From Oscillospiraceae bacterium (GTDB lineage: Bacteria; Bacillota; Clostridia; Oscillospirales; Oscillospiraceae): a stretch of 64,000 nt of DNA. The notes beneath the pieces were generated by a model that made no database searches, was not told the DNA's origin, and was given only the letters and a program-made list of their open reading frames with translations. Position 1 is the first letter of the stretch; each line of letters starts with the position of its first letter. A program made the translations under genes and the position numbers. Location of the stretch: positions 123,666-187,665 of the forward strand of contig CACZDN010000002.1 of NCBI GenBank assembly GCA_902779945.1. The letters run 5' to 3'. Shown in pieces: positions 238 through 60,009 of the stretch.

Positions 238-1458
238 ATGGGAATCTACGAAGAACTGGTCGCCCGCGGCCTGATCGCACAGGTCACGAACGAGGATGAG
301 ATCCGCGAGATGGTCAACAACGGCAAAGCGGTTTTCTACATCGGCTTTGACTGCACGGCAGACTCACTCCATGTCGGGCACTTCATGGCGCTGTGCCTGA
401 TGAAGCGCCTGCAGATGGCGGGCAACAAGCCCATCGCCCTCATCGGCGACGGGACCACGCTCATCGGCGACCCCTCCGGCCGCAGCGATATGCGCAAGAT
501 GTTGAGCCGGGAGGACATTCAGCATAACGCCGAGTGCTTCAAGCGCCAGATGGAGAAGTTCATCGACTTCTCCGACGGCAAGGCCCTCATGCTCTATAAC
601 TCGGAATGGCTGGTGCCGCTGAATTATATCGAGCTTCTGCGCGAGGTGGGCGCCTGCTTCTCCGTGAACAACATGCTCCGGGCCGAGTGCTACAAGCAGC
701 GCATGGAGAAGGGCCTGAGCTTTTTGGAGTTCAATTATATGATTATGCAGTCCTACGACTTTTACTACATGTTCCAGCATTACGGCTGCAACATGCAGTT
801 TGGCGGCAACGACCAGTGGAGCAACATGCTCGGCGGCACGGAGCTGATCCGCAGAAAGCTCGGCAAAGATGCGCACGCCATGACCATCACGCTCCTGCTC
901 AACTCCGAGGGCAAGAAGATGGGCAAGACCGCGTCCGGCGCGGTGTGGCTCGATCCCAACAAGACAAGCCCCTTCGAGTTCTATCAGTACTGGCGCAACG
1001 TCGGCGACGCGGATGTGCTCAAATGCATCCGTATGCTGACCTTCCTCCCGCTCGAACAGATCGACGAGATGGACAAATGGGAGGGCAGCGAACTCAACCG
1101 CGCCAAGGAGATTCTGGCCTTTGAGCTGACCAGGCTCGTCCACGGCGAGGAGGAGGCCAAAAAGGCGGAGGCGTCGGCCAAGGCGCTCTTCGGCGGCGGC
1201 GAGGGCGGCGACCTGCCCGCTTCGGAGCTGGGCGAGACCGATCTGATCGACGGAAAGCTCGACATCCTGAGCATTCTTGTCAAGAGCGGACTGTGCCCCT
1301 CCAAGTCCGACGCCCGCCGCAACGTCCAGCAGGGCGGCGTCACAGTCGACGACGTGAAGATTTCCGACATTGCGGCAAGCTACGACGCGGATACCCTGCG
1401 CAATGGCATCATTGTGCGCCGCGGCAAGAAGAGCTTCAGTAAGGTCGTTTTGAAATAA
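238..1458 (+). CDS. tyrS: Tyrosyl-tRNA synthetase
   Basis: Class I aminoacyl-tRNA synthetase that charges tRNA-Tyr in the cytoplasm. With the ATG at 238 it is 406 residues. That start is preferred because AGGGAG (225-230) lies 7 bases upstream; an ATG at 232 is too close and longer in-frame starts run back into recN. The HIGH signature is HVGH at residues 45-48, and the KMSKS loop is KMGKT at 227-231. The tyrosine-pocket region YDFYYMFQHYGCNMQFGGNDQW is present, and the last ~60 residues form an S4 RNA-binding domain (SKSDARRNVQQGGVTVD). There is no room for a T-box leader after recN. The stop codon is part of the ATAA duplicated by the family A insertion that follows. Confidence 0.97.
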   Translation: MGIYEELVARGLIAQVTNEDEIREMVNNGKAVFYIGFDCTADSLHVGHFMALCLMKRLQMAGNKPIALIGDGTTLIGDPSGRSDMRKMLSREDIQHNAECFKRQMEKFIDFSDGKALMLYNSEWLVPLNYIELLREVGACFSVNNMLRAECYKQRMEKGLSFLEFNYMIMQSYDFYYMFQHYGCNMQFGGNDQWSNMLGGTELIRRKLGKDAHAMTITLLLNSEGKKMGKTASGAVWLDPNKTSPFEFYQYWRNVGDADVLKCIRMLTFLPLEQIDEMDKWEGSELNRAKEILAFELTRLVHGEEEAKKAEASAKALFGGGEGGDLPASELGETDLIDGKLDILSILVKSGLCPSKSDARRNVQQGGVTVDDVKISDIAASYDADTLRNGIIVRRGKKSFSKVVLK

Positions 1459-1617
1459 GGCAGCACCGCATAATTCGGCGAGAGCGAATCCCGAGAAAAA
1501 TTGGGTTCTGATGAAGGCAATTTTTCGCATGAATACTTTGTATATTGCAAGAAAAAATGACAAAATCAGGGCACAATTTTTCCGGGAGGCGCCGATGGCG
1601 CATTGTGCGGTGTTGCC
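1459..1617. mobile_element. Family A MITE-like palindromic element, copy A1
   Basis: A 159-bp imperfect inverted repeat beginning GGCAGCACCGCA and ending TGCGGTGTTGCC. It is flanked on both sides by ATAA (1455-1458 and 1618-1621), a candidate 4-bp target-site duplication whose left copy contains the tyrS stop codon. The sequence aligns along its length with copies at 45101 and 49483, and in inverse orientation with those at 3695, 28971 and 59913. It encodes no transposase. Insertion placed it between tyrS and the hairpin terminator at 1636. Confidence 0.85.
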
Positions 1618-1635
1618 ATAAGCGATACCACGGAT

Positions 1636-1673
1636 AAAACCCATAGGAGGGGAATTCCCTTCCTATGGGTTTT
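1636..1673 (+). terminator. Intrinsic terminator, probably of tyrS
   Basis: A 13-bp stem, AAAACCCATAGGA (1636-1648) with TCCTATGGGTTTT (1661-1673), around a GC-rich internal part, closing with a TTTT run. It lies 177 bases beyond the tyrS stop only because element A1 sits between them. The A- and T-rich ends would let it work in both directions. Confidence 0.7.
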
Positions 1674-1693
1674 GAGACAGGAGAGAGCCTGCA

Positions 1694-3526
1694 ATGTACG
1701 AATTCGACAAAATCAAGCTGGTTGTCTGGGACCTGGACTATACTCTGTGGCAGGGAACCCTGTCGGAGGGCGAGGTACAGGTTCCGGAGGAGAACCTGCG
1801 CCTTGTCAAACGCCTGACCGATGTGGGCATCGTCAACTCCATATGCAGCAAAAACGACAGGGCGACTGTCGAGAAAAAGCTGCGATCTCTCGGCCTGCTG
1901 GACGATTTCGTCTTCACGTCCATCAACTGGGAGGCGAAGGGCCAGCGTGTCCGTCAGCTTATCCAGGACATGCAGCTTCGCCCGGTGAACGTGCTGTTCC
2001 TTGACGACAATCCCTCCAACCGCGGCGAAGTTGCCTATTTCAGCGAGGGGATCATGACCGAGGGACCAGAGATCATCCCGCGCCTGCTGGAGGACGTGCT
2101 TGCCTGTAAAAAAGCGGACCCCGAGCACAAGCGCCTTCGGCAGTACCGCCTGCTGGAGACCAGGCGCAGGGAAATGTTGCAGTACAGCTCAAATGAGGAC
2201 TTTTTGCTGCACAGCGACGTGCGGGTGGTTGTCGGCCGCGACTGCCTCGATAACCTCAACCGCATCCACGATCTCATCCTGCGCTCCAACCAGCTTAATT
2301 TCACCAAGCTGCGCAGCACGGAGGAGGAGCTGCGGTCAACGCTCAGCGATCCTGCGGTCAAAAGCGGCTATGTATCCGTGACGGACCGCTTCGGTGACTA
2401 TGGCATCGTCGGTTTCTATGCCGTGAAGGACGCGGCGCTCCTGCACTTTGTCTTCTCCTGCCGCATCCTCGGCATGGGGGTGGAGCAGTATGTCTACAAC
2501 CTCCTGGGCCGTCCAAAGCTGGAGATTCAGGGCGAGGTGATCGGGGACCTCTCTTCAGCAGAGCTTCCCAGGTGGATCAACCGGACGGATGGCACGGCGC
2601 CGCAGCTCTCCAAAATGGAGATCAGCAATCTCAAAGCGCACAGCGTCCTGGTGAAAGGCCCATGCGACCTGAACGCGGTCTATCCCTTCATCGCGGACAC
2701 GGAGCTCTTCGATACGGAGTTTACCTACGTGGCGGACGGCGGCTTTCTGGTTGAATCGACCGGGCACACGACGCACATTGTCGAGGCGGACAGGCTGAGC
2801 GACGGACAGAAGCGCCTCGTCTGCGCAGAGGTACCCTTTGCCGACCCGGGGATGTACAATGACAATATCTTCCGACGGGACTATAAGGTCATCTTCATCA
2901 GCATCCTTCAGGATGCAAATCTGGGCGTCTATCACCGGAAGGGGACAGGGGAGAGGCTGGCCTTCCTACCGGCTTCCACACCGCTGACCGATCCCGGGAA
3001 CTGGCCGAAGCTCATCCGCGGCGACTGCTTTACCGCAAACTTCCGGTTCACCGAAGAGATTCTGCGTCTATTCTATGAAAAATACGAATTTGACGGGAGA
3101 AACACCCCCGAACAGACGCTTGAAAACCTGTTCCTGATCCGTGAAAAGCTGCCGCGAAGCTGTACCCTCTGTGTCATGCTGGGGGGCGAGCTTGAGAGGG
3201 AAGGGGAGAGCGACCCGAACTACCGGGACCGCCACCTTGTCCATAAGGCCTTCAACGACGCCATACGGGTCTGGGCGCGGGATGCGGAAAATGTCTGCCT
3301 GCTCGACGTCAACAAGTATCTGACGGATCAGAGCTGTTTTTACAACCATTTCAACCATTACTCCAAACCGGTCTACTATCAGATCGCAAAGGAGATGGTC
3401 GAGATCATCAACCGCTGCACCGGCAGCGAGATTCATGAAAAGTCCAGACTGTTCCTGGCCGCGACAAACGCGAGAGACAGGATGGCCCTCGTCTATCACG
3501 GCTTGAAAAAACGCGGAAAGCGATAG
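1694..3526 (+). CDS. FkbH-like HAD-IIIC family protein
   Basis: 610 residues, preceded by an AGGAGAG site. The N-terminal third is a HAD-superfamily IIIC domain: motif I DLDYT at residues 13-17, SKND at 52-55 and the DDNPSNR motif at 104-110. FkbH relatives load a glyceryl or other three-carbon unit onto carrier proteins in polyketide, peptide or glycan pathways. The C-terminal third (MLGGELERE..., then NHFNHYSKPVYYQIA near the end) resembles the SGNH-like part of these proteins, with an N-H-F-N-H stretch where the catalytic His would be. No carrier protein, synthase or glycan cluster flanks it, so the substrate is unknown. Family assignment is firm; the role is not. Confidence 0.8.
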   Translation: MYEFDKIKLVVWDLDYTLWQGTLSEGEVQVPEENLRLVKRLTDVGIVNSICSKNDRATVEKKLRSLGLLDDFVFTSINWEAKGQRVRQLIQDMQLRPVNVLFLDDNPSNRGEVAYFSEGIMTEGPEIIPRLLEDVLACKKADPEHKRLRQYRLLETRRREMLQYSSNEDFLLHSDVRVVVGRDCLDNLNRIHDLILRSNQLNFTKLRSTEEELRSTLSDPAVKSGYVSVTDRFGDYGIVGFYAVKDAALLHFVFSCRILGMGVEQYVYNLLGRPKLEIQGEVIGDLSSAELPRWINRTDGTAPQLSKMEISNLKAHSVLVKGPCDLNAVYPFIADTELFDTEFTYVADGGFLVESTGHTTHIVEADRLSDGQKRLVCAEVPFADPGMYNDNIFRRDYKVIFISILQDANLGVYHRKGTGERLAFLPASTPLTDPGNWPKLIRGDCFTANFRFTEEILRLFYEKYEFDGRNTPEQTLENLFLIREKLPRSCTLCVMLGGELEREGESDPNYRDRHLVHKAFNDAIRVWARDAENVCLLDVNKYLTDQSCFYNHFNHYSKPVYYQIAKEMVEIINRCTGSEIHEKSRLFLAATNARDRMALVYHGLKKRGKR

Positions 3527-3570
3527 GGGACAGGCGCGCAAAGCAGCCTGTCCCCCGGCGTGAAATACCC

Positions 3571-3640
3571 TGTCATCCTGAACGCAGCGAAGGATCTAAC
3601 TTCCAAGGCAGAAAGCCCCGGAGCTTAGATCCTTCGTCAT
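3571..3640. repeat. Family B palindromic repeat, copy B1
   Basis: Begins TGTCATCCTGAACGCAGCGA and contains AAGGATCT, then AGATCCTTCGTCAT after a short loop, forming a long hairpin. The left terminal arm matches the other family B copies; the right one is shortened to CGTCAT followed by a T-run. It lies in the intergenic stretch after the FkbH-like gene and could act as its terminator. Confidence 0.8.
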
Positions 3641-3694
3641 TTTTTTGATATCATTTAACGAAGCCTGGCACAAATCTGGCCGGAAAGATTCAAA

Positions 3695-3819
3695 GGCAAC
3701 ACCGCACAATCCGCCTTCGGCATCTCCTGGAAAAATTGCGCTCTGATTTCGTCACTTTTCCTTGAGGTACACAAAGTACATCTGCGAAAAAGTCTCTTGC
3801 CGAATTATGCGGTATTGCC
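3695..3819. mobile_element. Family A MITE-like element, copy A2 (internally shortened)
   Basis: Starts GGCAACACCGCACAAT and ends TATGCGGTATTGCC, with CAAA on both sides (3691-3694 and 3820-3823), a perfect candidate 4-bp target duplication. At 125 bp it lacks about 33 bp of one arm compared with full copies. It is inverted relative to copy A1. Confidence 0.85.
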
Positions 3820-3843
3820 CAAACTGTTCTGTCGTAAATAGTA

Positions 3844-4527
3844 TCAGCTTGTTTTTCTCTCCACAAGCAAAACGTTGCAGGTGAGAGCCAGGCTGTCGCG
3901 GCGGGCGTAGTCAGAGAACTCCCTGCGGTTGAGATAATACAGCCTCCCCCACGATGAAATGCGCAGCCATTCCGCATCCATTCCCGTCACGGTGAAAAAA
4001 TGTGCCTTTGCCCCCGCCGTTGGCCTGTAGGAGCCGTCGGCGGTTTTCCGATAAAAACGGACACATTTCTTTCCCCAGATGATGGGGAAATTCGGCCCGG
4101 CGGCGAGAATGACCGGGACGTCTGACCGCAGCATGGCTTCGATCCTGTTCCAGAGCCGGGACGATGCAAAGCACCAGCGGGCCGTAAAGGGCATCTGCTG
4201 TTCGCGGAAAAAACGCTCGACCCCGGCCATGAGCATGAGGCCGTTGATTCCGGCATAGGGGATCAGTGGAAAGAAGCGCCGGCTCATGCGCAGGATGCAC
4301 TCGTCATAGAGCGAAGAGGGGACAGGCCCCTCTTCGGGCACACCGTCAAAGAAGGCAGCCGGCACGGTCAGATGCCAGCGGTTGAGATAGAGCAGCAGAT
4401 CGGCCGCCGCGACTATACCGCAGCCGCAGCGCCTGACCATGGCGTCCGACGAGTACTGCTGCCCTCCGCCGTAACTCAGACCGCTGTGCATATCGATGGA
4501 GATATAAGGATGTTTTAGAGAGAGCAT
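3844..4527 (-). CDS. Putative C39-like papain-fold peptidase, hypothetical
   Basis: 227 residues from the ATG at 4527. Features fitting a C39/papain-like fold are CGCGIVAAADLLLYL at 34-48 (candidate nucleophile Cys36 at the start of a helix), AHFFTVTGMD at 175-184 (candidate His176) and ISSWGRLYYLN at 190-200, like the conserved D/S-W-G strand. No signal peptide or membrane segment is seen. An in-frame TTG further out (4617) would add 30 residues, but that sequence lies inside repeat C1 and looks non-coding, so the ATG with GGTGG just upstream is preferred. No relatives or partners are adjacent. Whether it is a peptidase or an inactive relative cannot be decided here. Confidence 0.55.
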   Translation of the reverse strand: MLSLKHPYISIDMHSGLSYGGGQQYSSDAMVRRCGCGIVAAADLLLYLNRWHLTVPAAFFDGVPEEGPVPSSLYDECILRMSRRFFPLIPYAGINGLMLMAGVERFFREQQMPFTARWCFASSRLWNRIEAMLRSDVPVILAAGPNFPIIWGKKCVRFYRKTADGSYRPTAGAKAHFFTVTGMDAEWLRISSWGRLYYLNRREFSDYARRDSLALTCNVLLVERKTS

Positions 4528-4570
4528 ATCCACCACGGCTTCATGATCAGGAACACCCCGCCCCTGAGCA

Positions 4571-4695
4571 GGCAATGTCAATGGTTTCGGAAAACGCCGT
4601 GCCAATCCGAGGGACAAAGCGGCAGAGAATCATCAGGATTCTTCAAAACCGCTTTGCTCCTCTCTGGATGACAGAGTCAGCTTCTTGACATTGCC
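4571..4695. repeat. Family C palindromic element, copy C1
   Basis: Outer arms GGCAATGTCAA (4571-4581) and TTGACATTGCC (4685-4695) are an exact 11-bp inverted repeat. Inside, read on the minus strand, GTCATCC, AAGCGG, GAAGAATC, GATTCT, TGCCGCTT and CTC blocks align in order with copy C2 at 62028-62150. The core resembles family B (GTCATCC arm) but has a different centre. It lies between the C39-like gene and pfp. Confidence 0.7.
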
Positions 4696-6121: not shown

Positions 6122-7090
6122 ATGCCTCTCGTAACCACCAAGGAAATGTTTGCAAAAGCCTATGACGGCGGTTATGCCGTCGGCGCGTTCAACGTGAACA
6201 ACATGGAGATCGTCCAGGGCATCACCGAGGCCGCGGGCGAACTGAATAGCCCGGTGATCCTCCAGGTGTCCAAGGGCGCCCGTGCCTATGCCAACCATAC
6301 TTACCTGGTCAAGCTGGTCGAAGCCGCCATCATCGAGAATCCCGAGATCCCCATCGCCCTGCATCTTGACCACGGCGATACCTTTGAGCTCTGCAAATCC
6401 TGCATCGACGGCGGTTTTACCTCCGTTATGATCGACGCCTCCTCCAAATCCTTCGAGGACAATATCGCCCTGACCCGTCAGGTCGTGGAATATGCGCATG
6501 ACCACGGCGTAGTGGTCGAGGCTGAGCTCGGCACTCTCGCCGGCGTTGAGGATGAGGTCGCGGTCGAGCACGGCCACGAGAGCTACACCCGTCCCGAGGA
6601 GGTCGAGGAGTTCGTCACCCGCACCGGCTGCGACTCTCTGGCCATCGCGATCGGCACCTCCCACGGCGCATACAAGTTCAAGGCCTCCCAGTGCACCCGC
6701 AATGCGGACGGCATTCTGGTCCCGCCTCCTCTCCGCTTCGACGTTCTGCATGAGTGCATCAAGCGTCTGCCCGGCTTCCCCATCGTGCTGCACGGCTCCT
6801 CCTCTGTCCCGCAGGAGTTTGTCAAGATGATCAACCAGTACGGCGGCAACATGCCCGACGCCATCGGCATCCCCGAGGATCAGCTCCGCGAGGCTGCCAA
6901 GCTCGCCGTCTGCAAGATCAATATCGACTCCGATATTCGCCTTGCCATGACCGGCAATATCCGCAAGTACTTTGCGGAGCACCCGGATCACTTCGATCCG
7001 CGCCAGTACCTCAAGCCCGCACGTCAGGCTGTGAAGGACATGGTCGCACATAAGATCGTTCACGTTCTCGGTTCGGACGGCAAAGCCTGA
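6122..7090 (+). CDS. fba: Class II fructose-bisphosphate aldolase
   Basis: 322 residues, AAGGAGAA upstream of the ATG. Zinc-dependent aldolase that interconverts fructose 1,6-bisphosphate with glyceraldehyde 3-phosphate and DHAP. The metal/catalytic motif HLDHGD is at 81-86, followed by EAELG, the IGTSHGAYKF loop and VLHGSSSVP, all characteristic of class II enzymes with zinc-binding His residues. Full length for the family. It follows its own strong promoter, is divergent from pfp, and is 32 bp upstream of the P-type-ATPase-like gene, with which it may be co-transcribed. Confidence 0.96.
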   Translation: MPLVTTKEMFAKAYDGGYAVGAFNVNNMEIVQGITEAAGELNSPVILQVSKGARAYANHTYLVKLVEAAIIENPEIPIALHLDHGDTFELCKSCIDGGFTSVMIDASSKSFEDNIALTRQVVEYAHDHGVVVEAELGTLAGVEDEVAVEHGHESYTRPEEVEEFVTRTGCDSLAIAIGTSHGAYKFKASQCTRNADGILVPPPLRFDVLHECIKRLPGFPIVLHGSSSVPQEFVKMINQYGGNMPDAIGIPEDQLREAAKLAVCKINIDSDIRLAMTGNIRKYFAEHPDHFDPRQYLKPARQAVKDMVAHKIVHVLGSDGKA

Positions 7091-7122
7091 TCTCTCTTCA
7101 GGATCAACAGGGAGGTGGCAGA

Positions 7123-28943: not shown

Positions 28944-28970
28944 GTATCTGAAACCTCCTGTTTTGTTTAT

Positions 28971-29128
28971 GGCAACACCGCACAATACGCCAGCGGCATC
29001 TTCCGGAAAATCGCGCTCTGATTTCGTCACTTCTTCCTGGCATACACAAAGTATGCCTGCGAAAAACTGCCATCATCAGAACCTGTTTTTTCTCGGAATT
29101 TGCTCTTGCCGCATGATGCTGTGATGCC
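28971..29128. mobile_element. Family A MITE-like element, copy A3
   Basis: Full 158-bp copy starting GGCAACACCGCACAAT. Both sides carry TTAT (28967-28970 and 29129-29132), a perfect candidate 4-bp duplication. The right terminus has drifted (GATGCTGTGATGCC). It is inverted relative to A1 and lies between the HD protein and DUF362 genes. Confidence 0.83.
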
Positions 29129-29199
29129 TTATGGAAAAACAGCTGCCATCCGGCGGCTGTTTTTCCTGTTCAATGTGTATGAAACCGCTGTCAAGACAA

Positions 29200-30321
29200 T
29201 CAGATTCTGATAAGCTCGTACTCTCTGCTGCCAAGGCCGATCTCCTCGGCGTGGACAAGCCCTGCTTCCCACTCGGCGTCCGGGTGGTTCAGATGGAAAT
29301 ACTCGTGATTGGGATCGTCGTTCCAGAAGGATTTGATATGCCGGTCGAGACGGCTGCCCTCGACGACGGGCATCCTGTTGCAGAGATCCACACATGCCTG
29401 ATCCAGTGCGACGGGATCAAACGAGGCCAGCATCCCGACGTCGGGGATGATGGGGACGTCGTTTTCGGCATGGCAGTCGCAGAAGGGCGAGACGTCGCAG
29501 ATCAGGGAGATATGGAACGAGGGACGGTCCTTGACTACGGCGTAGGCATACTCGGAGATCTTGCAGGAGAGGATGGCAGTGGAGTTTGCGACGCTGGGCT
29601 CGATCGCGTTCTTGGGACAGATGGCGAGACACCTGCCGCAGCCGACGCACTTTGCGTGGTCAATGCTGGCCTTCCCGTTTACAACGCTGGGACCGCTGTG
29701 TGCGCAGATGCGGACGCAGGAGCCGCAGCCGACGCAGAGCTCCTGTTCTACAACGGGCTTGCCCTCCCAGTGCTGCTCCATCTTTCCGGCGCGGGAGCCG
29801 CTGCCCATGCCGAGGTTCTTGAGCGCACCGCCGAAGCCTGCCTCCTCGTGGCCCTTGAAATGGCTGAGGGAAATCACGATATCGGCGTCCATGATGGCCT
29901 GGCCGATCTTTGCCTCCTTGACAAGGGGCAGGTTGATGGGGACCAGGGCCTCGTCGCTGCCCTTGAGGCCGTCCGCAATAATGACATGGCAGCCGGTCTG
30001 CAGCGGGGAAAAGCCGTTGAGGTAAGCGGTATCCATGTGGTCCAGCGCGTTCTTGCGGCTTCCGACGTAGAGCGTGTTGCAGTCGGTCAAAAAGGCGTTG
30101 CCGCCGAGGGCGCGGACGTAGTCGACGACGACCCTGGCGTACTGCGGGCGCAAATAGGCGAGGTTGCCGAGCTCGCCGAAGTGGATCTTGATCGCGGCAA
30201 AGCGGTCTGTGAAGTCGATCTGCTCGAAGCCTGCGCGCTTCATCAGCCTGTGCAGCTTCTGCGGGAGGGGTTCGTTGGGGGTGGCGTGAAAGTCGGTGAA
30301 GAATACGGGTGATTTGTTCAT
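29200..30321 (-). CDS. DUF362 domain protein with 2[4Fe-4S] ferredoxin module
   Basis: 373 residues from the ATG at 30321. The N- and C-terminal parts form the DUF362 domain (KIHFGELGNLAYLRPQYARVVVDYV, SHFKGHEEAGFGGALKNLGMG). A ferredoxin module is inserted near residues 190-250 with two cysteine clusters, CVGCGSCVRIC and CVGCGRCLAICP. Such proteins are common in anaerobes and probably pass electrons to an unknown partner. The segment CDCHAENDVPIIPDVGMLAS adds further Cys residues that could bind metal. Monocistronic, with its own promoter at 30392-30420. Confidence 0.88.
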   Translation of the reverse strand: MNKSPVFFTDFHATPNEPLPQKLHRLMKRAGFEQIDFTDRFAAIKIHFGELGNLAYLRPQYARVVVDYVRALGGNAFLTDCNTLYVGSRKNALDHMDTAYLNGFSPLQTGCHVIIADGLKGSDEALVPINLPLVKEAKIGQAIMDADIVISLSHFKGHEEAGFGGALKNLGMGSGSRAGKMEQHWEGKPVVEQELCVGCGSCVRICAHSGPSVVNGKASIDHAKCVGCGRCLAICPKNAIEPSVANSTAILSCKISEYAYAVVKDRPSFHISLICDVSPFCDCHAENDVPIIPDVGMLASFDPVALDQACVDLCNRMPVVEGSRLDRHIKSFWNDDPNHEYFHLNHPDAEWEAGLVHAEEIGLGSREYELIRI

Positions 30322-43701: not shown

Positions 43702-45066
43702 ATGACGGAACAACGGCCACGGCGCAGACGATGGCCCTCTCTCACCCTGTTCATGATCCTCATGTTTGTCGCGGGGATCACGATGTCCGGTCTGCTGCTC
43801 TCCATCGCCGCGCGCGTCACGGAGCAGTACGACGAGACCAAGCAGGCGACCGACGATTATCTCTCCTGTCAAAACGCCGTTTACATCGTCCGGGATACCA
43901 TCGACGAGCTGGACGGGCGGACGATGAACTATATCGTCACCGGCAATTTGAAGGAAGTGACCGCCTACTCCGACGAGATTCTGACGGCGCGCGCCATGGA
44001 TAAAGCCGTGGAGGTACTCAAGAGCTATCTGACGGAGGAGCGCTCCCTCCAGCAACTGAACACGGCGATCAACCTGCATAACATGATGGCGAAGATGCAG
44101 CGGCGCGCCATGCGCCTTGCGATGCAGGCGCGCGGGCAGGACATATCGAAATATCCGCTGCTCTCTGAAGTTGAGCTGAGCGCGGAGGAGCTTTCCCTCT
44201 CGCCGGAGGAGCAGCTTGCGCAGGCTCTCGACATGCTGTACACGCTGGACTATACCCATCTCAAGGGTCAGGTGGACGTGCGCATCCGTCTGTGCAAGGA
44301 GGGGCTGAGCGTCTCCATGACGAACCGGCAGCAGAGCGTATCCCGGGAGCTGGAGCAGCTTTTGCAGAGGCAGCGCACATTGATCACCATCATGTCGGCA
44401 GGGTTTTTACTGGTGCTGGTTTTCGTGATGACGCTGGTGGTTGCTCCGATCAACCGGCTTATCAAGCTCATTCAGAAAAAGGCGGAGGTGGCAGTCAGGG
44501 GCTCCTCCGAGATCATCTTTCTGGCCGAGACCTATAACCACATGCGCGGGCAGATGGAGGCCGCAAACTCCCGCCTCAGCTATGAGGCGGCCCACGATGC
44601 GCTGACGGGGGTCTATAACCGCAGCGCCTTTGAGGAGATGCAGGCCGGCTGTGCCGGGAAAAACATCGCCCTGCTGATTCTGGACGTGGACTTCTTCAAG
44701 CAGGTCAACGACACCTATGGCCATGATATGGGGGACCGCGTGCTGAAAAGGGTCGCGCATGTCCTGCGCGCTTCCTTCCGGGAGGCGGACATGGTCTGCC
44801 GCATCGGCGGGGACGAGTTCTGTGTGTTCGTGGTCGGGGTGACCTCCGCCTCCGAAAACGTCATCGGGGAGAAGCTCGTAAAGCTGGCCGATACGCTGCG
44901 CGAGCCGGAGGCAGATGTACCCGGCGTAACGGTAAGCGTGGGCTGCGCCTTCTCCGACCGGCTTTCCGGGGAAGAGAGCATCACCAAAAAAGCGGACCGC
45001 GCCCTCTACCGCGTCAAGAAAAACGGCCGCGACAGCTTTTGCTTTTACACGGGAGAGGATATGTAA
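43702..45066 (+). CDS. Membrane-bound diguanylate cyclase (GGDEF)
   Basis: 454 residues from the ATG at 43702 (GGAGGGGGG upstream). TM1 (about 13-38), an extracytoplasmic helical sensor of about 180 residues, TM2 (about 225-250), then a GGDEF domain. The active-site motif is intact (RIGGDEFCVF) and the inhibitory I-site RxxD (READ) lies five residues before it. The metal/substrate residues DALTGVYNRSAFEEM and LDVDFFKQVNDTYGHDMGD are present. Predicted to make cyclic di-GMP. Last gene of the TRAP operon, perhaps linking substrate supply to lifestyle. Confidence 0.92.
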   Translation: MTEQRPRRRRWPSLTLFMILMFVAGITMSGLLLSIAARVTEQYDETKQATDDYLSCQNAVYIVRDTIDELDGRTMNYIVTGNLKEVTAYSDEILTARAMDKAVEVLKSYLTEERSLQQLNTAINLHNMMAKMQRRAMRLAMQARGQDISKYPLLSEVELSAEELSLSPEEQLAQALDMLYTLDYTHLKGQVDVRIRLCKEGLSVSMTNRQQSVSRELEQLLQRQRTLITIMSAGFLLVLVFVMTLVVAPINRLIKLIQKKAEVAVRGSSEIIFLAETYNHMRGQMEAANSRLSYEAAHDALTGVYNRSAFEEMQAGCAGKNIALLILDVDFFKQVNDTYGHDMGDRVLKRVAHVLRASFREADMVCRIGGDEFCVFVVGVTSASENVIGEKLVKLADTLREPEADVPGVTVSVGCAFSDRLSGEESITKKADRALYRVKKNGRDSFCFYTGEDM

Positions 45067-45100
45067 AGCGCCGGCATTGAGACTGTCTTAAAACGTTTAG

Positions 45101-45258
45101 GGCAACACCGCATAATTCGGCGAGAGCGAATCCTGAGAAAATTTGGGTTCTGATGCAGGCTTTTTTTGCAGGAATACTTTATGTATTTCAAGAAAAAGTG
45201 ACGAAATCAGGGTTCAAATTTTCCAGGAGATGCCGCAGGCGAATTGTGCGGTGTTGCC
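45101..45258. mobile_element. Family A MITE-like element, copy A4
   Basis: Full 158-bp copy with ends GGCAACACCGCA and TGCGGTGTTGCC, flanked by TTAG on both sides (45097-45100 and 45259-45262). Same orientation as A1. Its exact terminal repeats suggest a recent insertion. Confidence 0.9.
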
Positions 45259-45288
45259 TTAGCTTCCTGTCTTCCTGTGGAATATTGT

Positions 45289-45358
45289 GACGAAGGATCA
45301 TTCCTTTCGAGGTTTTTTGAGCCTCCGGGGAAAGATCCTTCGTTTTGCTCAGAATGCT
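45289..45358. repeat. Family B palindromic repeat, copy B5
   Basis: TGACGAAGGATCATTCC and GGGGAAAGATCCTTCGTTTTGCTCAGAATG form the arms; the left end is shortened compared with B2. It lies 26 bp after element A4. Confidence 0.75.
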
Positions 45359-45367
45359 CTGTATGAA

Positions 45368-45396
45368 TTGACAGCCCCGGCGGTATCTTTTATAAT
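45368..45396 (+). promoter_or_regulatory. Consensus promoter of the methionine synthase operon
   Basis: TTGACA (45368-45373), 17-bp spacer, TATAAT (45391-45396), 38 bp before the first gene. There is no S-box or other riboswitch between promoter and gene. Confidence 0.85.
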
Positions 45397-45434
45397 ACCT
45401 GTACAAGACCGTCATGCGCAGAGGAGGGAGAGCG

Positions 45435-46106
45435 ATGGAGTACAGACTGGACAGGATTCCGCGCGAGCAGACGCTGCACTATCTGGGCTGGCACGGCGGG
45501 AAACTCCCGGCTGAGATCGAGGACTCGCTCTCCCGCTGCGAGGCGCTTCTGCTTTCAGCCGCGAAGCCGCGCATAGTCTGGAAGCTGTTTGCGTATCGGG
45601 AAGACGGCAGCTTTGCCGGTACGGACTACACCCCGGACGGACAGGACATCCGGGCCTTTCTCCGCGGCTGCGAGCAGGTCGTTCTTCTGGCCGCTACCCT
45701 CGGGATCGAGACCGAGGCGCTGATCCGCCGCGCGCAGACGCGCGACATGGGTGAGGCGGTCATGCTCGACGCCGCCGGGAGCGCCGCGATCGAGGCGCTC
45801 TGTGACAGCTTCTGTGCGGAGCTCGGGAAAGAGCTCTCCCCCTGCTGTCTGACGGAGCGCTACAGCCCCGGCTACGGGGACTATCCCCTGTCGGAGCAGA
45901 GGGCGATTTTCAGGCTGCTGGATGTGTCGCGGCGCATCGGCGTCAGCCTGTCGGACAGCGGTTTGATGATCCCGCAAAAAAGCGTCACGGCGCTCATCGG
46001 CGTATCGAAGCGCCCCATACCCAAACAGCGAACTGGCTGCGAGGTCTGTCAGCTCCGCGGGAGCTGCGCGTTCAGGAAGGAAGGGAAGCACTGTGGAAAA
46101 ACCTGA
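45435..46106 (+). CDS. Methionine synthase activation-domain protein
   Basis: 223 residues from the ATG at 45435. It corresponds to the C-terminal reactivation domain of cobalamin-dependent MetH as a separate protein: EALLLSAAKPRIVWKLFAY..., VMLDAAGSAAIEALCDSFCAEL and the conserved RYSPGYGDYPLSEQRAIFRLLDVSRRIGVSLSDSGLMIPQKSVTALIGVS, which binds SAM. A Cys-rich tail (CEVCQLRGSCAFRKEGKHC) may hold an iron-sulfur or metal site. It overlaps metH by 14 bases. Confidence 0.92.
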   Translation: MEYRLDRIPREQTLHYLGWHGGKLPAEIEDSLSRCEALLLSAAKPRIVWKLFAYREDGSFAGTDYTPDGQDIRAFLRGCEQVVLLAATLGIETEALIRRAQTRDMGEAVMLDAAGSAAIEALCDSFCAELGKELSPCCLTERYSPGYGDYPLSEQRAIFRLLDVSRRIGVSLSDSGLMIPQKSVTALIGVSKRPIPKQRTGCEVCQLRGSCAFRKEGKHCGKT

Positions 46107-49482: not shown

Positions 49483-49643
49483 TGCAGCACCGCATAATAC
49501 GTCGAGAGCAGATTTCGAGAAAAACCACGTTCTGATGAAGTCACTTTTTTTGCAGGAATACTTTTGTGTATTGCAAGATAAAGTGACGAGATCAGGGCGT
49601 GATTCTTCCGGAAGGTACCGAAGGCGGATTGTACGGTGTCGCC
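49483..49643. mobile_element. Family A MITE-like element, copy A5
   Basis: About 161 bp, starting TGCAGCACCGCATAAT (first G changed) and ending TGTACGGTGTCGCC. Same orientation as A1. Flanks TTAA and TATA do not match exactly, so the duplication is lost or this is an older copy. The right end meets the rnjA stop codon (49645-49643). Confidence 0.75.
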
Positions 49644-51301
49644 TATATCTCCGTAATCACGGGCAAAATCATGGGACTTCTCCGGGTCGTCTTGTAGAGA
49701 TAGCCGGAGAGATTGTTCTTTACCTTGCCCTTGATCGCGGTCCAGTCGTTGATGTGCTGCTGGGCGCAGGAGTCCGCGGACTCCATGGCGACGCGCTTGA
49801 GCTCATCCATCAGCGCCTCGGCCTCTTTGACATAGATGAAGCCGCGGGTAATAATCTGGGGCTCGGACAGGAGCCGGTGATCGTGGGTAGAATACGGCAG
49901 AACTACGACGACCATGCCGTCCTCCGCGAGCTTGTGGCGGTCGCGCAGGACCACGCTGCCGACCTCGCCGACACCGCTGCCGTCCACCAGGATCGCGCCC
50001 GCCGGTACGCTTGCCTCACACTTGATGCTCTTTTTTGTGATCTCGATGACGCCGCCGTTTTCCGCGATGACCACGTTTTTCGGCGCAACACCCATGCGCT
50101 TTGCAAGCTCCGCGTGCTTGACGAGCATACGGTGCTCGCCGTGGATGGGGACGAAGAACTTCGGCTTCGTCAGCGCCAGCATCATCTTGAGCTCCTCCTG
50201 GCAGGCGTGGCCGGTGACATGAAGATCGGTGTGGCGGTCGTAGATGACCTCCGCACCCTTGTGGAAAAGCTCGTCGATCACGCGGCTGATCGTGGTCTCG
50301 TTGCCGGGGATGGCCGACGCCGAGATGATCACGCGGTCGCCCGCGTCCACCTGGATCTGCTTATGCTCGGAAAACGCCATGCGGTAGAGGGCGGACATGG
50401 TCTCGCCCTGGCTGCCGGTGGAGATGATGACGGTCTGGCTGCGGGGCAGCTTGTTGATCTTCTCAATGTCCACCATCACGTTTTCAGGGATGTCCATATA
50501 ACCGAGGACATTGGCCACGTTCAGCACGTTTTCCATGCTGCGCCCGGTGATGCCGACCTTGCGGTGATATTTTGCCGCAACGTTGATGATCTGCTGGAGC
50601 CTGTGGACGTTGGAGGCAAAGGTGGTGATGATGATGCGCTTGTCACAGCCCATGAAGAGCTTGTCAAAGCTCTCCCCGACCTTACTCTCGGAATCAGAGT
50701 GACCGCGCACCTCCACATTCGTGGACTCTCCCAGCAGGGCGAGGACCCCCTCGTTGCCGAACTGGCCGAAGCGGACCAGGTCGATCATCCTGCCGGAGAT
50801 CGGCGTTACGTCGATCTTGAAGTCGCCGGTGTGGATCACAGTGCCGATGGGTGTGGTGATGGCTACCGCAGCGGAGTCCGGAATGGAGTGGTTCACATGG
50901 ATAAACTCCACGGTGAAGCAGCCCAGCCGGAAGCTCGACCCTGTTTTCTTTGTAAAAATTTGCGTGTTGTAGAGCAGATTGTGCTCCTCGAGCTTGAGCT
51001 CGATCAGGGCGGCGGTCAGGGGCAGCGTATAGATCGGCACGTCCAGGTCGCGCAGAATATAGGGGACCGCGCCGATGTGGTCCTCATGCCCGTGCGTGAG
51101 GATGATGCCGCGCAGCTTCTCATGATTGGCGCGCAGATACGTGATGTCGGGAAAGACGCTGTCGATGCCGTACATGTCCTCGTCGGGAAAGCCCATGCCG
51201 CAGTCGACGACGATGATGTCGTTGCCGAACTCATAGGCGTACATGTTTTTCCCGATCTCGCCGAGGCCGCCCAGCGGGATTATTTTTAACTTAGAAATCA
51301 T
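49643..51301 (-). CDS. rnjA: Ribonuclease J
   Basis: 552 residues from the ATG at 51301 (GGAGAAG upstream). Metallo-beta-lactamase/beta-CASP nuclease with both 5'-3' exo- and endonuclease activity in mRNA decay and rRNA processing. Metal motif HGHEDHIGA, then the beta-CASP segments (FASNVHRLQQIINVAAKYHRKVGITGRSM), SASAIPGNE, HVTGHACQEEL, and the C-terminal domain. Full length. The stop codon overlaps the edge of element A5. It follows recR by 76 bp. Confidence 0.95.
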   Translation of the reverse strand: MISKLKIIPLGGLGEIGKNMYAYEFGNDIIVVDCGMGFPDEDMYGIDSVFPDITYLRANHEKLRGIILTHGHEDHIGAVPYILRDLDVPIYTLPLTAALIELKLEEHNLLYNTQIFTKKTGSSFRLGCFTVEFIHVNHSIPDSAAVAITTPIGTVIHTGDFKIDVTPISGRMIDLVRFGQFGNEGVLALLGESTNVEVRGHSDSESKVGESFDKLFMGCDKRIIITTFASNVHRLQQIINVAAKYHRKVGITGRSMENVLNVANVLGYMDIPENVMVDIEKINKLPRSQTVIISTGSQGETMSALYRMAFSEHKQIQVDAGDRVIISASAIPGNETTISRVIDELFHKGAEVIYDRHTDLHVTGHACQEELKMMLALTKPKFFVPIHGEHRMLVKHAELAKRMGVAPKNVVIAENGGVIEITKKSIKCEASVPAGAILVDGSGVGEVGSVVLRDRHKLAEDGMVVVVLPYSTHDHRLLSEPQIITRGFIYVKEAEALMDELKRVAMESADSCAQQHINDWTAIKGKVKNNLSGYLYKTTRRSPMILPVITEI

Positions 51302-51377
51302 TTCTTCTCCATTCGATAAACAGTAGTAAATATATGTAATACGATAAGGAATTATAACCGGGATCACCCGGCGCTAT

Positions 51378-55275: not shown

Positions 55276-57833
55276 CAGTGCGCCTCGGCCCAGCTGTGCC
55301 CGATATGCGCCTCTGCCGTGAGCGGGACGGAGAGCTTGACCGCGTTCTCCATCTCCTGCTCCAGAAGGGCGCGCACCTGCTGCGCCTCCGCCTCCGGGCA
55401 CTCGACGATGAGCTCATCGTGTACCTGCAAAATCAGGCGGGCACGAAGCTTTTCCTCTTTCAATCTGCGGTGGACGTTCACCATGGCGAGCTTCATCACG
55501 TCCGCGGCTGTGCCCTGTACGGGCATGTTGAGGGCCACGCGCTCGCCGAAGGAGCGGACGTTGAAGCTGGCGCTCTTGAGCTCCGGCAGCCAGCGGCGGC
55601 GGTGGAAGATGGTCTCAACATAGCCGTCCTGCTTTGCGCGTGCCTTGATGCTCTCCATGTAATCGCGCACGCCGTGGTATTTGTCAAGATAGGCGTCCAT
55701 GTAGGCCTTGGCCTCGTTTGGGAAGACGCCGATGTCCTGCGCCAGCGAGAAGGCCGAGATGCCGTAGACGATGCCGAAGTTGACCGCCTTGGCGCGGCTC
55801 CTCTGCGTCGGCGTGACCTCGCTGACCGGGACGCCGAAGACCTTGGAGGCCGTGACGGTGTGGAAATCCTCACCGCTCAAAAACGCCTCGCGCATGGCCT
55901 GGTCGCCGGAGATATGGGCCAGCAGCCGCAGCTCGATCTGGCTGTAATCTGCGTCAACGAGCACCATATCCGGCCCCGCGACGAACATCTTGCGGATCTC
56001 CGCGCCGAGCTGCTTTCGCACCGGGATGTTCTGCAGGTTCGGCTCCGTGGAGGAGAGCCTGCCGGTCGCCGTCACGGTCATCTGGAAACTGGAGTGGATG
56101 CGCCCGTCCTCGCCGATCACCTTCAGAAGCCCGTCGGCGTAAGTGGATTTGAGCTTCGTGAGCGTGCGGTATTCCAGCACCTCGTCCACGATAGGGTGCT
56201 TGCCGCGCAGCTTCTCCATGACGTCGATGTTGGTGCTCCACCCGGTTTTGGTCTTCTTCCCGGAGGGCAGCATCAGCTCTTCAAACAGAACCTCGCCGAG
56301 CTGTTTGGGGGAATTGATGTTGAACTCGTGGCCCGCGTGCTGCCAGATGCTGTTTTGCAGACGCTCGATATCGCCGTTCAGATTCTCGCCGAATTCGTAG
56401 AGTGCCCTGCGGTCCACGTAAAAGCCCGCCTGCTCCATGTCGGAGAGGACGATGCAGAGCGGCAGCTCGATCTCATCATAGAGCTTTGTCATGCCCAGCT
56501 CCTCGAGCTTCCGGCGCAGAACCGGCCAGAGCTCCAGCAGCGTATCCGTACCGGCCGTATCGCAGCCGAGATAACGGGCGGCGACGCGGCTGAGGGGATA
56601 GTCGCTTTCATTGGCGTCCAGAAGATAAGCCGCCAGCGCCGTGTCAAAGACGAAGCCCTCGCGGCCCAGGTTCTTTTCGATCAGTGCGTTCATCAGTTCC
56701 TTGACATGGTGGCCGATCTTCGGCTTATCGGGGCTGAAAATCGCCGCGAGCAGTGCGGGAAACTTCTCCGGCGCACTGTCAAAGTCCAGGCCATAGACCG
56801 TTTTGCCGTCGCTGAATTCCAGGCTGTCATCCCTTCCCGCATGGAGCGTCACGGCGAGGCACCCGGCCTCCTCGACAGCCCTGAGAATGTCCAGGAGCGC
56901 CGCGTCCTCTGCGCGGATATACGGCAGCTCCTTCCGCGCAGAGGAGGATACGGCTTCCCCGCTCTCCTGCAGGCCCCATTTCTCAATAAATTTCTGGAAG
57001 CCGAAGCGCTTGAACAGACCATACAGCGCGCTGGTATAATTTTTGTCCCAGAGGTTTTCGGCGGGGTCGAACTCCATCGGGACCTCTTTCAGTATGGTCG
57101 CGAGCCAGTAGGACAGGCGGGCGCTCTCCTCCCCGGCGGCGAGCTTTTTGCGCACTCCGTCCTTCACGTCGAGCGCGTCGAGATCAGAATAGATCTTCTC
57201 CACCGTCCCGTACCTGCGCACCAGCTCGAGCGCGGTCTTTTCGCCGATGCCAGGCACGCCGGGGATGTTGTCGGAGCTGTCGCCCATCAGGGCTTTCAGA
57301 TCGACCATCTGCGGCGGATCGAAGCCGTATTCCTCCCGGAAAACCGCGGGGGTATAGTTGATGGTCTCGGTCTGGCCCATGCGGGTCTTGACATTGCAGA
57401 CCGTGGTGGTATCGGTAATGAGCTGCAGGCTGTCCTTGTCGCCGGTGACGATGACGCAGTCCCAGCCCTGCTCCCGGCATTTGACGGAGACGGTGCCCAG
57501 AATATCGTCCGCCTCGTAGCCGGAAAGCTCGTAGCGGCGGATGCCCATGGCGTCCAGCGTCTCCTTCAGGAGCGGCATCTGCTGACTGAGCTCCTCCGGC
57601 ATTCCCTTTCGCTGCGCCTTGTAGCCTTCGTAGGCCCGGTGGCGGAAGGTCGGCTCCTTCCGGTCAAAGCTCACACATACGGCGTCCGGCTTCTGTTCGT
57701 CCAGCATACGCTGGAGGATGTTCAGAAAGCCGAAGATCGCGTTGGTCGGCGTGCCGTCCGGGGCGTTGAGGGCGTGCACGCCGTAGAAGGCCCGGTTCAC
57801 AATGCTGTTGCCGTCCAGTATCATCAGTTTCAT
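55275..57833 (-). CDS. polA: DNA polymerase I
   Basis: 852 residues. 5'-3' exonuclease domain (1-~290; MILDGNSIVNRAFYG, SGYEADDILGTV, VTGDKDSLQLI, GIGEKTALELV), a 3'-5' exonuclease-like domain in which the DxE motif is missing (LAVTLHAGRDDSLEF), and a polymerase domain with motif A VDADYSQIELRLLAH, motif B RSRAKAVNFGIVYGISAF and motif C LQVHDELIVE. So it probably lacks proofreading, as in Bacillus. It follows uvrB by 18 bp. Confidence 0.97.
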   Translation of the reverse strand: MKLMILDGNSIVNRAFYGVHALNAPDGTPTNAIFGFLNILQRMLDEQKPDAVCVSFDRKEPTFRHRAYEGYKAQRKGMPEELSQQMPLLKETLDAMGIRRYELSGYEADDILGTVSVKCREQGWDCVIVTGDKDSLQLITDTTTVCNVKTRMGQTETINYTPAVFREEYGFDPPQMVDLKALMGDSSDNIPGVPGIGEKTALELVRRYGTVEKIYSDLDALDVKDGVRKKLAAGEESARLSYWLATILKEVPMEFDPAENLWDKNYTSALYGLFKRFGFQKFIEKWGLQESGEAVSSSARKELPYIRAEDAALLDILRAVEEAGCLAVTLHAGRDDSLEFSDGKTVYGLDFDSAPEKFPALLAAIFSPDKPKIGHHVKELMNALIEKNLGREGFVFDTALAAYLLDANESDYPLSRVAARYLGCDTAGTDTLLELWPVLRRKLEELGMTKLYDEIELPLCIVLSDMEQAGFYVDRRALYEFGENLNGDIERLQNSIWQHAGHEFNINSPKQLGEVLFEELMLPSGKKTKTGWSTNIDVMEKLRGKHPIVDEVLEYRTLTKLKSTYADGLLKVIGEDGRIHSSFQMTVTATGRLSSTEPNLQNIPVRKQLGAEIRKMFVAGPDMVLVDADYSQIELRLLAHISGDQAMREAFLSGEDFHTVTASKVFGVPVSEVTPTQRSRAKAVNFGIVYGISAFSLAQDIGVFPNEAKAYMDAYLDKYHGVRDYMESIKARAKQDGYVETIFHRRRWLPELKSASFNVRSFGERVALNMPVQGTAADVMKLAMVNVHRRLKEEKLRARLILQVHDELIVECPEAEAQQVRALLEQEMENAVKLSVPLTAEAHIGHSWAEAH

Positions 57834-57851
57834 GCTGTGCCTCCAAGCCGT

Positions 57852-59816
57852 TTACTTTACGCCGCGAAGGCGTATGATCTCATCGCGCAGCTGCGCTGCG
57901 ATCTCGTACTCGAGCATTTGCGCCGCCTTCTTCATCTGCGCCTCCAGCGAGGCGATGAGCTCTTTGCGCTCGCGCTCGGTCATCTTGACGCCGTTGGCCT
58001 TGAGCCTGGGCGCGGCTTCCGTGGAGATCTCAAGCAGCTCACGCACACTCTTGGTGATGGTCTTCGGGACAATGCCGTGCGACTCGTTATATGCCTGCTG
58101 CTTTTTGCGACGGCGCTCGGTCTCGTCGATGCAGGCGCGCATGGAGGGCGTGATCGTGTCCGCGTACATGATGACGAAGCTGTCGGCGTTTCGCGCCGCG
58201 CGCCCGACGGTCTGGATCAGGCTCGTCTCGCTTCGCAGGAAGCCCTCCTTGTCTGCGTCGAGTATGGCGACAAGCCCCACCTCCGGGATATCCAGCCCTT
58301 CGCGCAGAAGGTTGATCCCCACCAGAACGTCAAATTCCCCGAGGCGGAGGTCGCGTATGATCTCCATACGCTCAATGGTGCTGATGTCGTGGTGCATATA
58401 GCGGCAGCGGATGCCGGCGCCGGTCAGGTAAGCCGACAGGTCCTCCGCCATCTTCTTGGTGAGTGTGGTGACGAGGGTGCGCTGGCCCTTTTTGATTTTG
58501 TCGTTGATCTCGCCGATGAGGTCGTCGATCTGGCCCTCGACGGGGCGGACATAGATTTTCGGGTCCAGGAGCCCGGTCGGGCGTATAATCTGCTCTGCGA
58601 TCTGGCCCGCGCGTTCGCGCTCAAACTCTCCGGGTGTGGCGGAAACGTAGACCCGCTGGTGGATGCGCTCGGAAAACTCGTCGAACTTGAGGGGGCGGTT
58701 GTCGAAGGCGGAGGGCAGGCGGAAGCCGAATTCCACCAGCGACTCCTTCCGCGCCCTGTCTCCCCGGTACATGGCCCGCACCTGCGGGAGCGTCACATGG
58801 CTCTCGTCCACGAAGAGCAAAAAGTCCTTCGGAAAGTAGTCGAGCAGGGTCATCGGCGGGCTGCCGGGGGCACGGTTGGAGATCACGCGGGAATAGTTCT
58901 CGATCCCGGTGCAATAGCCCAGCTCCTGCATCATTTCAATGTCGTAGTCCGTGCGCTGCCTGATGCGCTGCGCCTCGAGGAGCTTGTTGTTGTCGGTGAA
59001 GTATTTGACGCGCTGCTCGCACTCCTCCCGGATGCGCACGATGGCCTCCGCCATTTTCTCTTTTGTGGTGACGTAGTGGCTCGCGGGATAGATGGCGGCA
59101 TGGTTGAGATAGCGCGTGGCCGCTCCGGTCACGACGTTGATCTCGCTGATGCGGTCGATCTCATCGCCGAAGAACTCCACTCGAATGGCCTTGTCGTAGG
59201 AGTAGGCGGGGTAGATTTCCAGCGTGTCACCGCGGACGCGGAACTTGTTGCGCTCAAAGGCCACGTCGTTTCTCTCGTAGCGGATCTCGACCAGCTTTCG
59301 CAGCAACTCGTCAAAATCCCGCGTCTGGCCCGGGCGCAGGGAGATCACCATATTGGCGTAGTCGATGGGGTCGCCGAGGCCGTAGATGCAGGACACGGAG
59401 GAGACGACGATCACATCCCGCCGCTCAAACAGACTTGACGTGGCACTGTGGCGCAGGCGTTCGATCTCGTCGTTGATCGAGCAGTCCTTCTCGATGAAGG
59501 TGTCCGTGTGCGGGATATACGCCTCCGGCTGGTAGTAGTCGTAGTAGGAGACGAAATACTCCACCGCGTTTTCCGGGAAGAATTCCTTGAACTCGCTGCA
59601 GAGCTGCGCTGCCAGCGTCTTGTTGTGTGCCAGCACTAGCGTCGGCCGGTTCAGCCGCGCGATGACGTTCGCCATCGTAAAGGTCTTGCCGGAGCCCGTG
59701 ACGCCCAGCAGGATCTGCTCGTCGATGCCGTTCTCGATCCCTGCGACAAGCGCGTCGATCGCCTCCGGCTGATCGCCGGTGGGCTTGTAGTCGGATACCA
59801 GTGTGAAACGATCCAT
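57852..59816 (-). CDS. uvrB: UvrABC system protein B
   Basis: 654 residues from the ATG at 59816 (GGGGAAA upstream). Damage-verifying helicase of nucleotide excision repair. Walker [11 protein letters not shown] near residue 35, the beta-hairpin region [30 protein letters not shown], helicase motifs V and VI ([44 protein letters not shown]) and the C-terminal UvrB/UvrC coiled coil. First gene of the repair run. uvrA and uvrC are not in the window. Confidence 0.97.
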
Positions 59817-59854
59817 AGTTTTTCCCCGCATCTTGATCCAAGTACTATTTTATT

Positions 59855-59883
59855 ATTATATCATAGCCTTCTTTATTTCACAA
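59855..59883 (-). promoter_or_regulatory. Promoter of the uvrB-polA operon
   Basis: Minus strand: TTGTGA (59883-59878), 17-bp spacer, TATAAT (59860-59855), 39 bp before the uvrB ATG. No LexA-type CGAAC-N4-GTTCG box was noticed. Confidence 0.65.
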
Positions 59884-59912
59884 GCGATTGAGCAAAAGAT
59901 TCTCCGGCTTCA

Positions 59913-59985
59913 GGCAGCAACGCACGATCTGCCACCGGGGGTCTCCCGGAAAATCTGCGCTCCGATTTTGTCACTTTTTCTTGCC
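59913..59985. mobile_element. Family A element, truncated copy A6
   Basis: Left half only: GGCAGCAACGCACGATCTGCC, then TCCCGGAAAATCTGCGCTCCGA and TTTGTCACTTTTTCTTG matching the other copies; similarity stops near 59985. The right half is missing. Confidence 0.7.
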
Positions 59986-60009
59986 AGCACGTTGTTCACA
60001 TGTTAAAAT
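59981..60009 (+). promoter_or_regulatory. Promoter of the HD-GYP gene
   Basis: TTGCCA (59981-59986), 17-bp spacer, TAAAAT (60004-60009), about 80 bp before the start codon. The -35 box comes from the end of the truncated element A6. Confidence 0.55.

What the first reader, a model, noticed from the sequence alone, without database searches (positions are those of the whole stretch)
1455..60009. Family A: a dispersed MITE-like palindrome with 4-bp target-site duplications
Six related elements (1459, 3695, 28971, 45101, 49483, 59913) have GGCAACACCGCA/TGCGGTGTTGCC ends and an imperfect whole-length inverted repeat, but no coding capacity. Four are bordered by perfect, mutually different 4-bp direct repeats: ATAA, CAAA, TTAT and TTAG. 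Different flanks with identical ends are the signature of transposition rather than of a shared regulatory site. No transposase is in the window, so mobilisation would be in trans.
Basis: partly seen in the sequence, partly recalled or inferred. Interest (0 to 1): 0.72.

Follow-up and report, generated by a model that had tools for sequence, protein, structure and literature searches.

The report
Jumping DNA hairpins with swappable ends
The window holds copies of a small non-coding jumping element that is probably moved by a transposase made elsewhere; its folded middle section also occurs in related gut bacteria inside elements with quite different ends, so the middle, not the ends, appears to be the part that persists.

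Summary
The elements are real: five full-length or nearly so, one truncated (59913). The four perfect 4-bp duplications are as reported. The own genome has 202 exact ends (reversed control 0); 24 of 38 sampled full copies have perfect 4-bp duplications, against 7.6% for flanks of different copies. Two copies sit inside other copies. No transposase was found in the own assembly (85.8% complete), but relatives carry IS5-family insertion sequences of 1.13-1.15 kb with the same ends and 4-bp duplications, three of them in the same genus.

The surprise is the interior: about 115 bases folding into one long hairpin. It recurs in same-genus elements with other ends (best pair: interior 92%, ends 54% identical), across the order and in a few other Bacillota. 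Pairing is kept by compensatory change (30 of 35 pairs) and folding is strand-specific (-34.4 against -12.1 kcal/mol). Three end classes match IS5-family sequences; none of 48 fetched transposase loci holds the interior.

Verdict: a MITE superfamily with a conserved, strand-specifically folded module and exchangeable ends. Mobilisation by IS5 and the module's function are inferred.

The parts
1459..1617 (+). Full element, 159 bp, class-A ends; folded module 1481-1596 on this strand; ATAA duplicated at 1455-1458 and 1618-1621
3695..3819 (-). Element with an internal deletion, 125 bp; module match 3716-3821 on the - strand (39.6 bits); CAAA duplicated at 3691-3694 and 3820-3823
28971..29128 (-). 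Full element, 158 bp; module 28992-29106 on the - strand; TTAT duplicated at 28967-28970 and 29129-29132
45101..45258 (+). Full element, 158 bp, both 12-bp ends exact; module 45123-45237; TTAG duplicated at 45097-45100 and 45259-45262
49483..49643 (+). Full but diverged element, 161 bp; module 49505-49622; no perfect duplication (TTAA/TATA)
59913..60008 (-). Truncated, diverged copy, model positions 64-159 only; no second end; not found by the structure model

Best explanation
Each element is a non-autonomous transposon of about 159 bp made of two parts. The outer 12-16 bp are the terminal repeats of an IS5-family insertion sequence; an IS5 transposase acting in trans, from a copy that is not in this assembly, moves the element into 4-bp AT-rich intergenic targets and duplicates them. 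The inner ~115 bp are a module that folds, on one strand only, into a long hairpin with an apical TTTGT, a GCA/AA internal loop and an AAGGC...AACG frame. The module is not part of the insertion sequences examined; it occurs combined with end types of at least three IS5-family groups and with other ends, so it spreads by riding on whichever transposase is at hand. Shown by sequence: the elements, their duplications, nested insertions, partner IS ends, the shared interior with different ends, compensatory change, strand asymmetry. Inferred: that IS5 transposase moves them; that ends are exchanged by recombination or template switching rather than by slow drift; that the module works as a folded single strand, most likely as RNA from copies that happen to be transcribed, with a single-stranded DNA hairpin used in mobility as the main alternative.
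For: Duplications: 24 of 38 perfect at 4 bp, 0, 1, 0, 0 at 2, 3, 5, 6 bp, 7.6% for different-copy flanks. Nested copies restore outer elements of 159 and 158 bp. Class-A insertion sequences with 4-bp duplications: L037, L040, and in the same genus L335, L336, L337; IS5 family by Pfam and NCBIfam. Class B: L045, L046, L049. Class C: L344. Interior A against D mean 76.8%, best 91.9%, ends mean 47.8%. No module in 48 transposase loci, some overlapping, 142,930 bases. Covariation 0.587 against 0.176 +- 0.009 shuffled and at most 0.198 slid. Strand: -34.35 with G.T 195, A.C 35; reverse complement -12.05 with G.T 60, A.C 92.
Against: The transposase is not in the own assembly, so the pairing with IS5 rests on ends and duplications. 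14 of 38 copies lack a perfect duplication. No IS with exact class-D, E, F, G or H ends was found. Copies lie in either orientation to genes (17 with, 14 against in tandem gaps), so a transcript of the folded strand is not assured. Outside the core the unpaired columns are on average no more conserved than the paired ones (0.581 against 0.625); only parts such as AAGG and ACG are. The core's own conservation is partly by construction, since most loci were found through it.
Confidence: 0.78

Rival explanations
1. An ordinary IS5-derived MITE family: one ancestral element whose ends drifted together with its transposases in different hosts; the interior is alike only by descent and does nothing.
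For: End classes B, C and D resemble one another, as do the matching insertion sequences; interior identity falls with distance between hosts.
Against: Within one genus, A and D elements reach 91.9% in the interior with 54% at the ends; the interior is absent from 48 transposase loci; outside the class the module sits in elements with GTACCTTG-type ends beside TA.
Confidence: 0.12
2. The pairing is kept without selection, by template-switch correction of imperfect palindromes during replication.
For: Such correction of inverted repeats is known (recalled, no call), and both arms covary along the whole length. Unpaired columns outside the core are not more conserved overall (0.581 against 0.625).
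Against: It should treat both strands alike, yet G.T far exceeds A.C on one strand (155 against 33 outside the core, 51 of 59 sequences) and the other strand folds worse. RNAalifold may favour G.T in choosing pairs, but the stem beside the core, counted at fixed positions, shows the same: 56 against 13 in 150 elements, 60 against 16 in 61 own ones.
Confidence: 0.1
3. Host regulatory palindromes or terminators (REP-like), not mobile elements.
For: Intergenic placement: 2 of 70 hits lie inside a called gene; strong hairpin.
Against: Copy-specific 4-bp duplications, one copy inserted in another, ends shared with insertion sequences, and gap types in proportion to gap length (31 tandem, 18 convergent, 15 divergent).
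Confidence: 0.03

Closest known systems
Bacterial MITEs moved by an insertion sequence in trans, e.g. RUP of pneumococcus with IS630-Spn1 (passages of PMC2229807)
   Same: Short, non-coding, intergenic, high copy number, terminal repeats like those of an IS, target duplication
   Different: RUP is reported to show no structure or function signature beyond its ends; here the interior is the constant part and the ends vary
IS5-family insertion sequences (NCBIfam NF033581)
   Same: Ends GGCAAYACCGCA and 4-bp duplications such as TTAG, CTAA, TTAA
   Different: 1.13-1.22 kb with a transposase and no trace of the folded module
bcr1 repeat of the Bacillus cereus group (passages of PMC6542083)
   Same: Group of 100-400-bp repeats, bcr1 up to 130 copies, mobile; structure kept by compensatory change (recalled)
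   Different: Mobility there is linked to a TTTAT motif and a recombination-like mechanism, restricted to one species group; no exchange of ends that I know of
CORE-SINE-type modular retrotransposons of animals (recalled)
   Same: A conserved middle with exchangeable ends; an analogy only
   Different: Retrotransposons; no relation by descent

Membership tests
MITE (non-autonomous DNA transposon) | short, terminal inverted repeats, no coding capacity | tested here: met
   125-161 bp with matching inverted ends; no transposase homologue in the own genome
MITE (non-autonomous DNA transposon) | target-site duplication | tested here: met
   24 of 38 perfect at 4 bp against 7.6% expected from different copies
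MITE (non-autonomous DNA transposon) | an autonomous element with the same ends | tested here: met
   IS5-family elements L037, L040, L335-L337; in relatives, not in the own assembly
MITE (non-autonomous DNA transposon) | movement by that transposase | not testable with these tools
   needs a transposition assay
Internal-deletion derivative of the IS | interior related to the IS interior | tested here: not met
   structure model: 0 matches at E up to 1 in 48 transposase loci; core absent from L035-L062
IS5 family (the partner) | IS5-type transposase | tested here: met
   DUF772 plus DDE_Tnp_1; NF033581 at 320 and 313 bits, cut-off 140
REP/BIME elements of RAYT transposases | no target duplication (recalled) | tested here: not met
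   4-bp duplications present; RAYT genes were not searched for
Known RNA family (Rfam 15) | match at gathering score | tested here: not met
   window 44900-45500 at E up to 5: three miRNA models far below their cut-offs; 16 loci at gathering: only rRNA and tRNA, in L279

The most novel reading that the evidence does not exclude
An old mobile RNA (or single-stranded DNA) module of Bacillota that persists by taking on the ends of whatever transposon is active in its host: the folded module, recognised by a conserved partner yet to be found, is the unit of selection, and transposases of different families are replaceable vehicles.
Probability: 0.35. Interest if true: 0.88.

Novelty: new variant of a known kind. 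Interest (0 to 1): 0.74.

Why it matters
Bacterial MITEs are usually described as worn-down insertion sequences in which only the ends matter. Here the ends are the replaceable part and a structured interior is the constant part, over a bacterial order and beyond. That makes a vague question (do MITE interiors do anything?) directly testable: transposition with and without the module, RNA-seq on the folded strand, and a search for the protein that recognises it. It also gives an annotation model for a repeat that can reach hundreds of copies per genome in gut bacteria and that matched no Rfam family in the sequences tested.

Tried and rejected
(1) One-ended 'half' copies as a separate mobile unit. 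In the own genome 18 partial copies stop 90-105 bp from the intact end. 16 of these 18 have a near-identical copy (at least 98.9%), against 14 of 39 full copies; two contigs begin at the same point (L009, L027); a full-length copy of that young subfamily exists in another genome (L334). I judge them mostly assembly artefacts of a repeat longer than the assembler's word length, about 0.7 likely, not proven; several keep both ends and the duplication, so real deletions are possible.
(2) Host use by orientation: no bias seen.
(3) PF13340-type IS5 transposase: one sub-threshold match, in G053.
(4) Known RNA family: none at cut-off.
(5) The structure-model match in G866 (L279) lies between a tRNA gene and 23S rRNA; I do not count it as a member.
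(6) Literature: seven searches. No paper in the held PMC library has the 15-16-base core or end words or both 'miniature inverted-repeat transposable' and Oscillospiraceae; the others were seen as listings with the starts of abstracts, capped at 8 to 15 rows, and nothing listed describes this family. Passages of three papers were seen. Most subscription journals are not held.
(7) One search was a faulty script (wrong pattern, zero rows), replaced.
Full report
What is in the window. Five full or nearly full elements and one truncated copy (59913) are present. The window lies in a 2.87-Mb assembly (39 contigs, 85.8% complete) with 202 exact end matches (reversed control 0) and 440 with up to one mismatch (control 9), which points to roughly 200-270 copies (440 ends halved, or six per 64 kb; my estimate).

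Transposition. I fetched 20 stretches (about 399 kb, chosen where listed matches lay, so copy density there is biased upward). A profile of five window elements gave 78 non-overlapping hits in these and the window, 39 of them full-length. One lies at a contig end and was dropped from the duplication test. Of the other 38, 24 have a perfect 4-bp duplication; perfect 2-, 3-, 5- and 6-bp ones occur in 0, 1, 0 and 0. Pairing flanks of different copies gives 7.6% at 4 bp. The duplicated words centre on TA: 10 of 24 are YTAR, which is 0.3% of intergenic words. In L019 and L023 one copy sits inside another; taking out the insert and one TTAG restores outer elements of 159 and 158 bp that match the consensus at 139 and 147 of 159 positions.

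The partner. PF01609 had no match in the own genome but matched in G108, where the 12-mer end lies beside the gene at contig ends. A 74-aa piece found relatives in 25 of 400 family genomes at E <= 1e-10. Insertion sequences with class-A ends (within two mismatches) and perfect 4-bp duplications are L037 (TTAG, 1137 bp) and L040 (CTAA, 1150 bp), and in the window's genus L335 (CTAA, 1145 bp), L336 (TTAA, 1134 bp) and L337 (TTAA, 1135 bp). Two proteins tested are IS5 family. In 101 same-genus genomes 12 have such a gene at E <= 1e-15; the own genome has none, as.

The shared interior. A search with the 159-base consensus matched 93 of 400 family genomes, 47 of 106 genera, many only over the central 25-30 bases, and the fetched places are palindromes with other ends. 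The 25-base core occurs at up to 3 mismatches in 22 of 295 order genomes, reversed control zero, in eight families. The viral collection gave two. Ends seen with this core include GGCAAYACCGCA, GGAACCTCTGATT, GGAARCGCTGATT, GTAAACGMTGATT, GGCCTTGTTTGA, GAGCCTGTTTAA, GGAACTGTGCAG and GAACCTGTATTC types.

Ends differ while the interior stays. Of 56 elements from the own genus that I could assign, 34 are class A (32 from the own genome; 22 with perfect duplication), 6 class C (5) and 16 class D (12). Interiors of A and D average 76.8% and reach 91.9%, against 83.5% between two class-A copies; the 28 end bases average 47.8% between A and D and 91.4% within A. In loci brought in by the core, a scan by ends with a duplication within one mismatch gave 23 class-A elements (20 with the core), 20 class-B (20), 8 class-C (8), 2 class-D (2), 1 G (1) and 1 H (0); this sample is biased towards the core. 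Insertion sequences with class-B ends (L045, L046, L049), class-C ends (L344, TTAA, 1223 bp) and near C/D ends (L242, L251) also exist. None of 48 transposase loci, some overlapping, contains the interior. No IS with exact ends of classes D to H was found.

Structure. From 211 elements I took 131 non-redundant ones and aligned 59, leaving out by eye truncated and strongly divergent ones, which favours the consensus. They fold as one hairpin with 35 pairs, 30 with changes on both sides. 90.9% of cells pair, against 67.6 +- 0.7% in shuffles and at most 53.5% in slid versions; covariation 0.587 against 0.176 +- 0.009 and at most 0.198. Without that selection, in 150 elements outside the own genome, the eight positions beside the core hold 973 Watson-Crick, 56 G.T, 13 A.C and 158 other cells of 1200. 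36 of 36 loci holding left-out members from outside the own genome match the model, though they were found through the core. Folding is strand-specific: -34.35 kcal/mol with G.T 195 and A.C 35, against -12.05 with 60 and 92 for the reverse complement; own-genome copies -40.60 against -27.86, class D -63.69 against -46.93. Against a simple story of conserved loops, unpaired columns outside the core average 0.581 majority frequency and paired ones 0.625; only some unpaired stretches (AAGG, ACG, A) stand out.

Spread. The model finds the module in 45 of 61 same-genus genomes, the own genome included, and in 7 of 249 phylum genomes at E <= 1e-4, five of them outside the class. One of these, in G866, lies beside 23S rRNA and I set it aside. 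In G873 and G848 the frame ACAAGGC...AACGCAG is kept, the apical loop differs, and the ends are GTACCTTG-like with TA outside the left end in 6 of 6 and outside the right end in 5 of 6. G618, another family of the order, has five copies of a ~275-bp element with the module off-centre. In near-finished genomes, 8 of 16 core places had recognisable ends with a 4-bp repeat within one mismatch, 5 are the G618 element and 3 are unclear.

Host context. Of 70 hits of at least 80 bp, 2 lie inside a gene called by my simple caller, 31 in tandem gaps, 18 convergent, 15 divergent, 4 at sequence edges; in tandem gaps 17 have the folded strand with the genes, 14 against. So the strand-specific constraint is hardly host use at each site. 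It more likely belongs to the element's own life, on RNA from read-through of some copies or on single-stranded DNA; which of the two is open.

Known or new. The MITE nature and the IS-in-trans model are familiar (RUP and IS630-Spn1, passages of PMC2229807; review PMC10969869, passages). I found no description of this family in the held library. I file it as a new variant of a known kind: a MITE superfamily with a conserved folded module and exchangeable ends.

Noticed in passing
own genome, e.g. L009:2-97, L027:1-99, L010:3098-3197, L022:16105-16204: Partial copies that stop 90-105 bp from the intact end (18 in the sample), at the edge of the central hairpin; probably assembly artefacts of a near-identical young subfamily, possibly real deletions.
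   Followed up: partly
L175:5491-5719, L182:4739-5041, L134:2195-2425, L174:2330-2607: Two or three folded modules side by side, direct or inverted, in public genome contigs.
   Followed up: no
L258, L265, L270, L272, L273 (G618): Five copies of a ~275-bp element with GGCGTGC/GCACGCC ends and the module off-centre.
   Followed up: partly
L029 and L031 (G108): Two IS5-type transposase pieces at contig ends, both cut short after CLAA about 100 bp from a class-A end: perhaps a multi-copy transposase-deleted intermediate.
   Followed up: no
L222:5009-5169 and 6951-7110: Class-A ends with a different central hairpin than the common core.
   Followed up: no
window 1455-1458, 29129-29132, 49643: Insertions at gene edges: the ATAA duplication holds the TAA stop of the ORF 88-1458; the TTAT duplication runs into the ATG of the ORF 29131-30312; the 49483 element ends at the stop of the - strand ORF 49643-51367.
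   Followed up: partly
L106:1142-1425: A 284-bp element with GAACCTGTATTC ends beside a class-A-like module element; it lacks the core.
   Followed up: no
L238, L239 (IMG/VR contigs): Two viral-collection contigs carry the core pattern, so phages or misbinned host DNA may carry the module.
   Followed up: no
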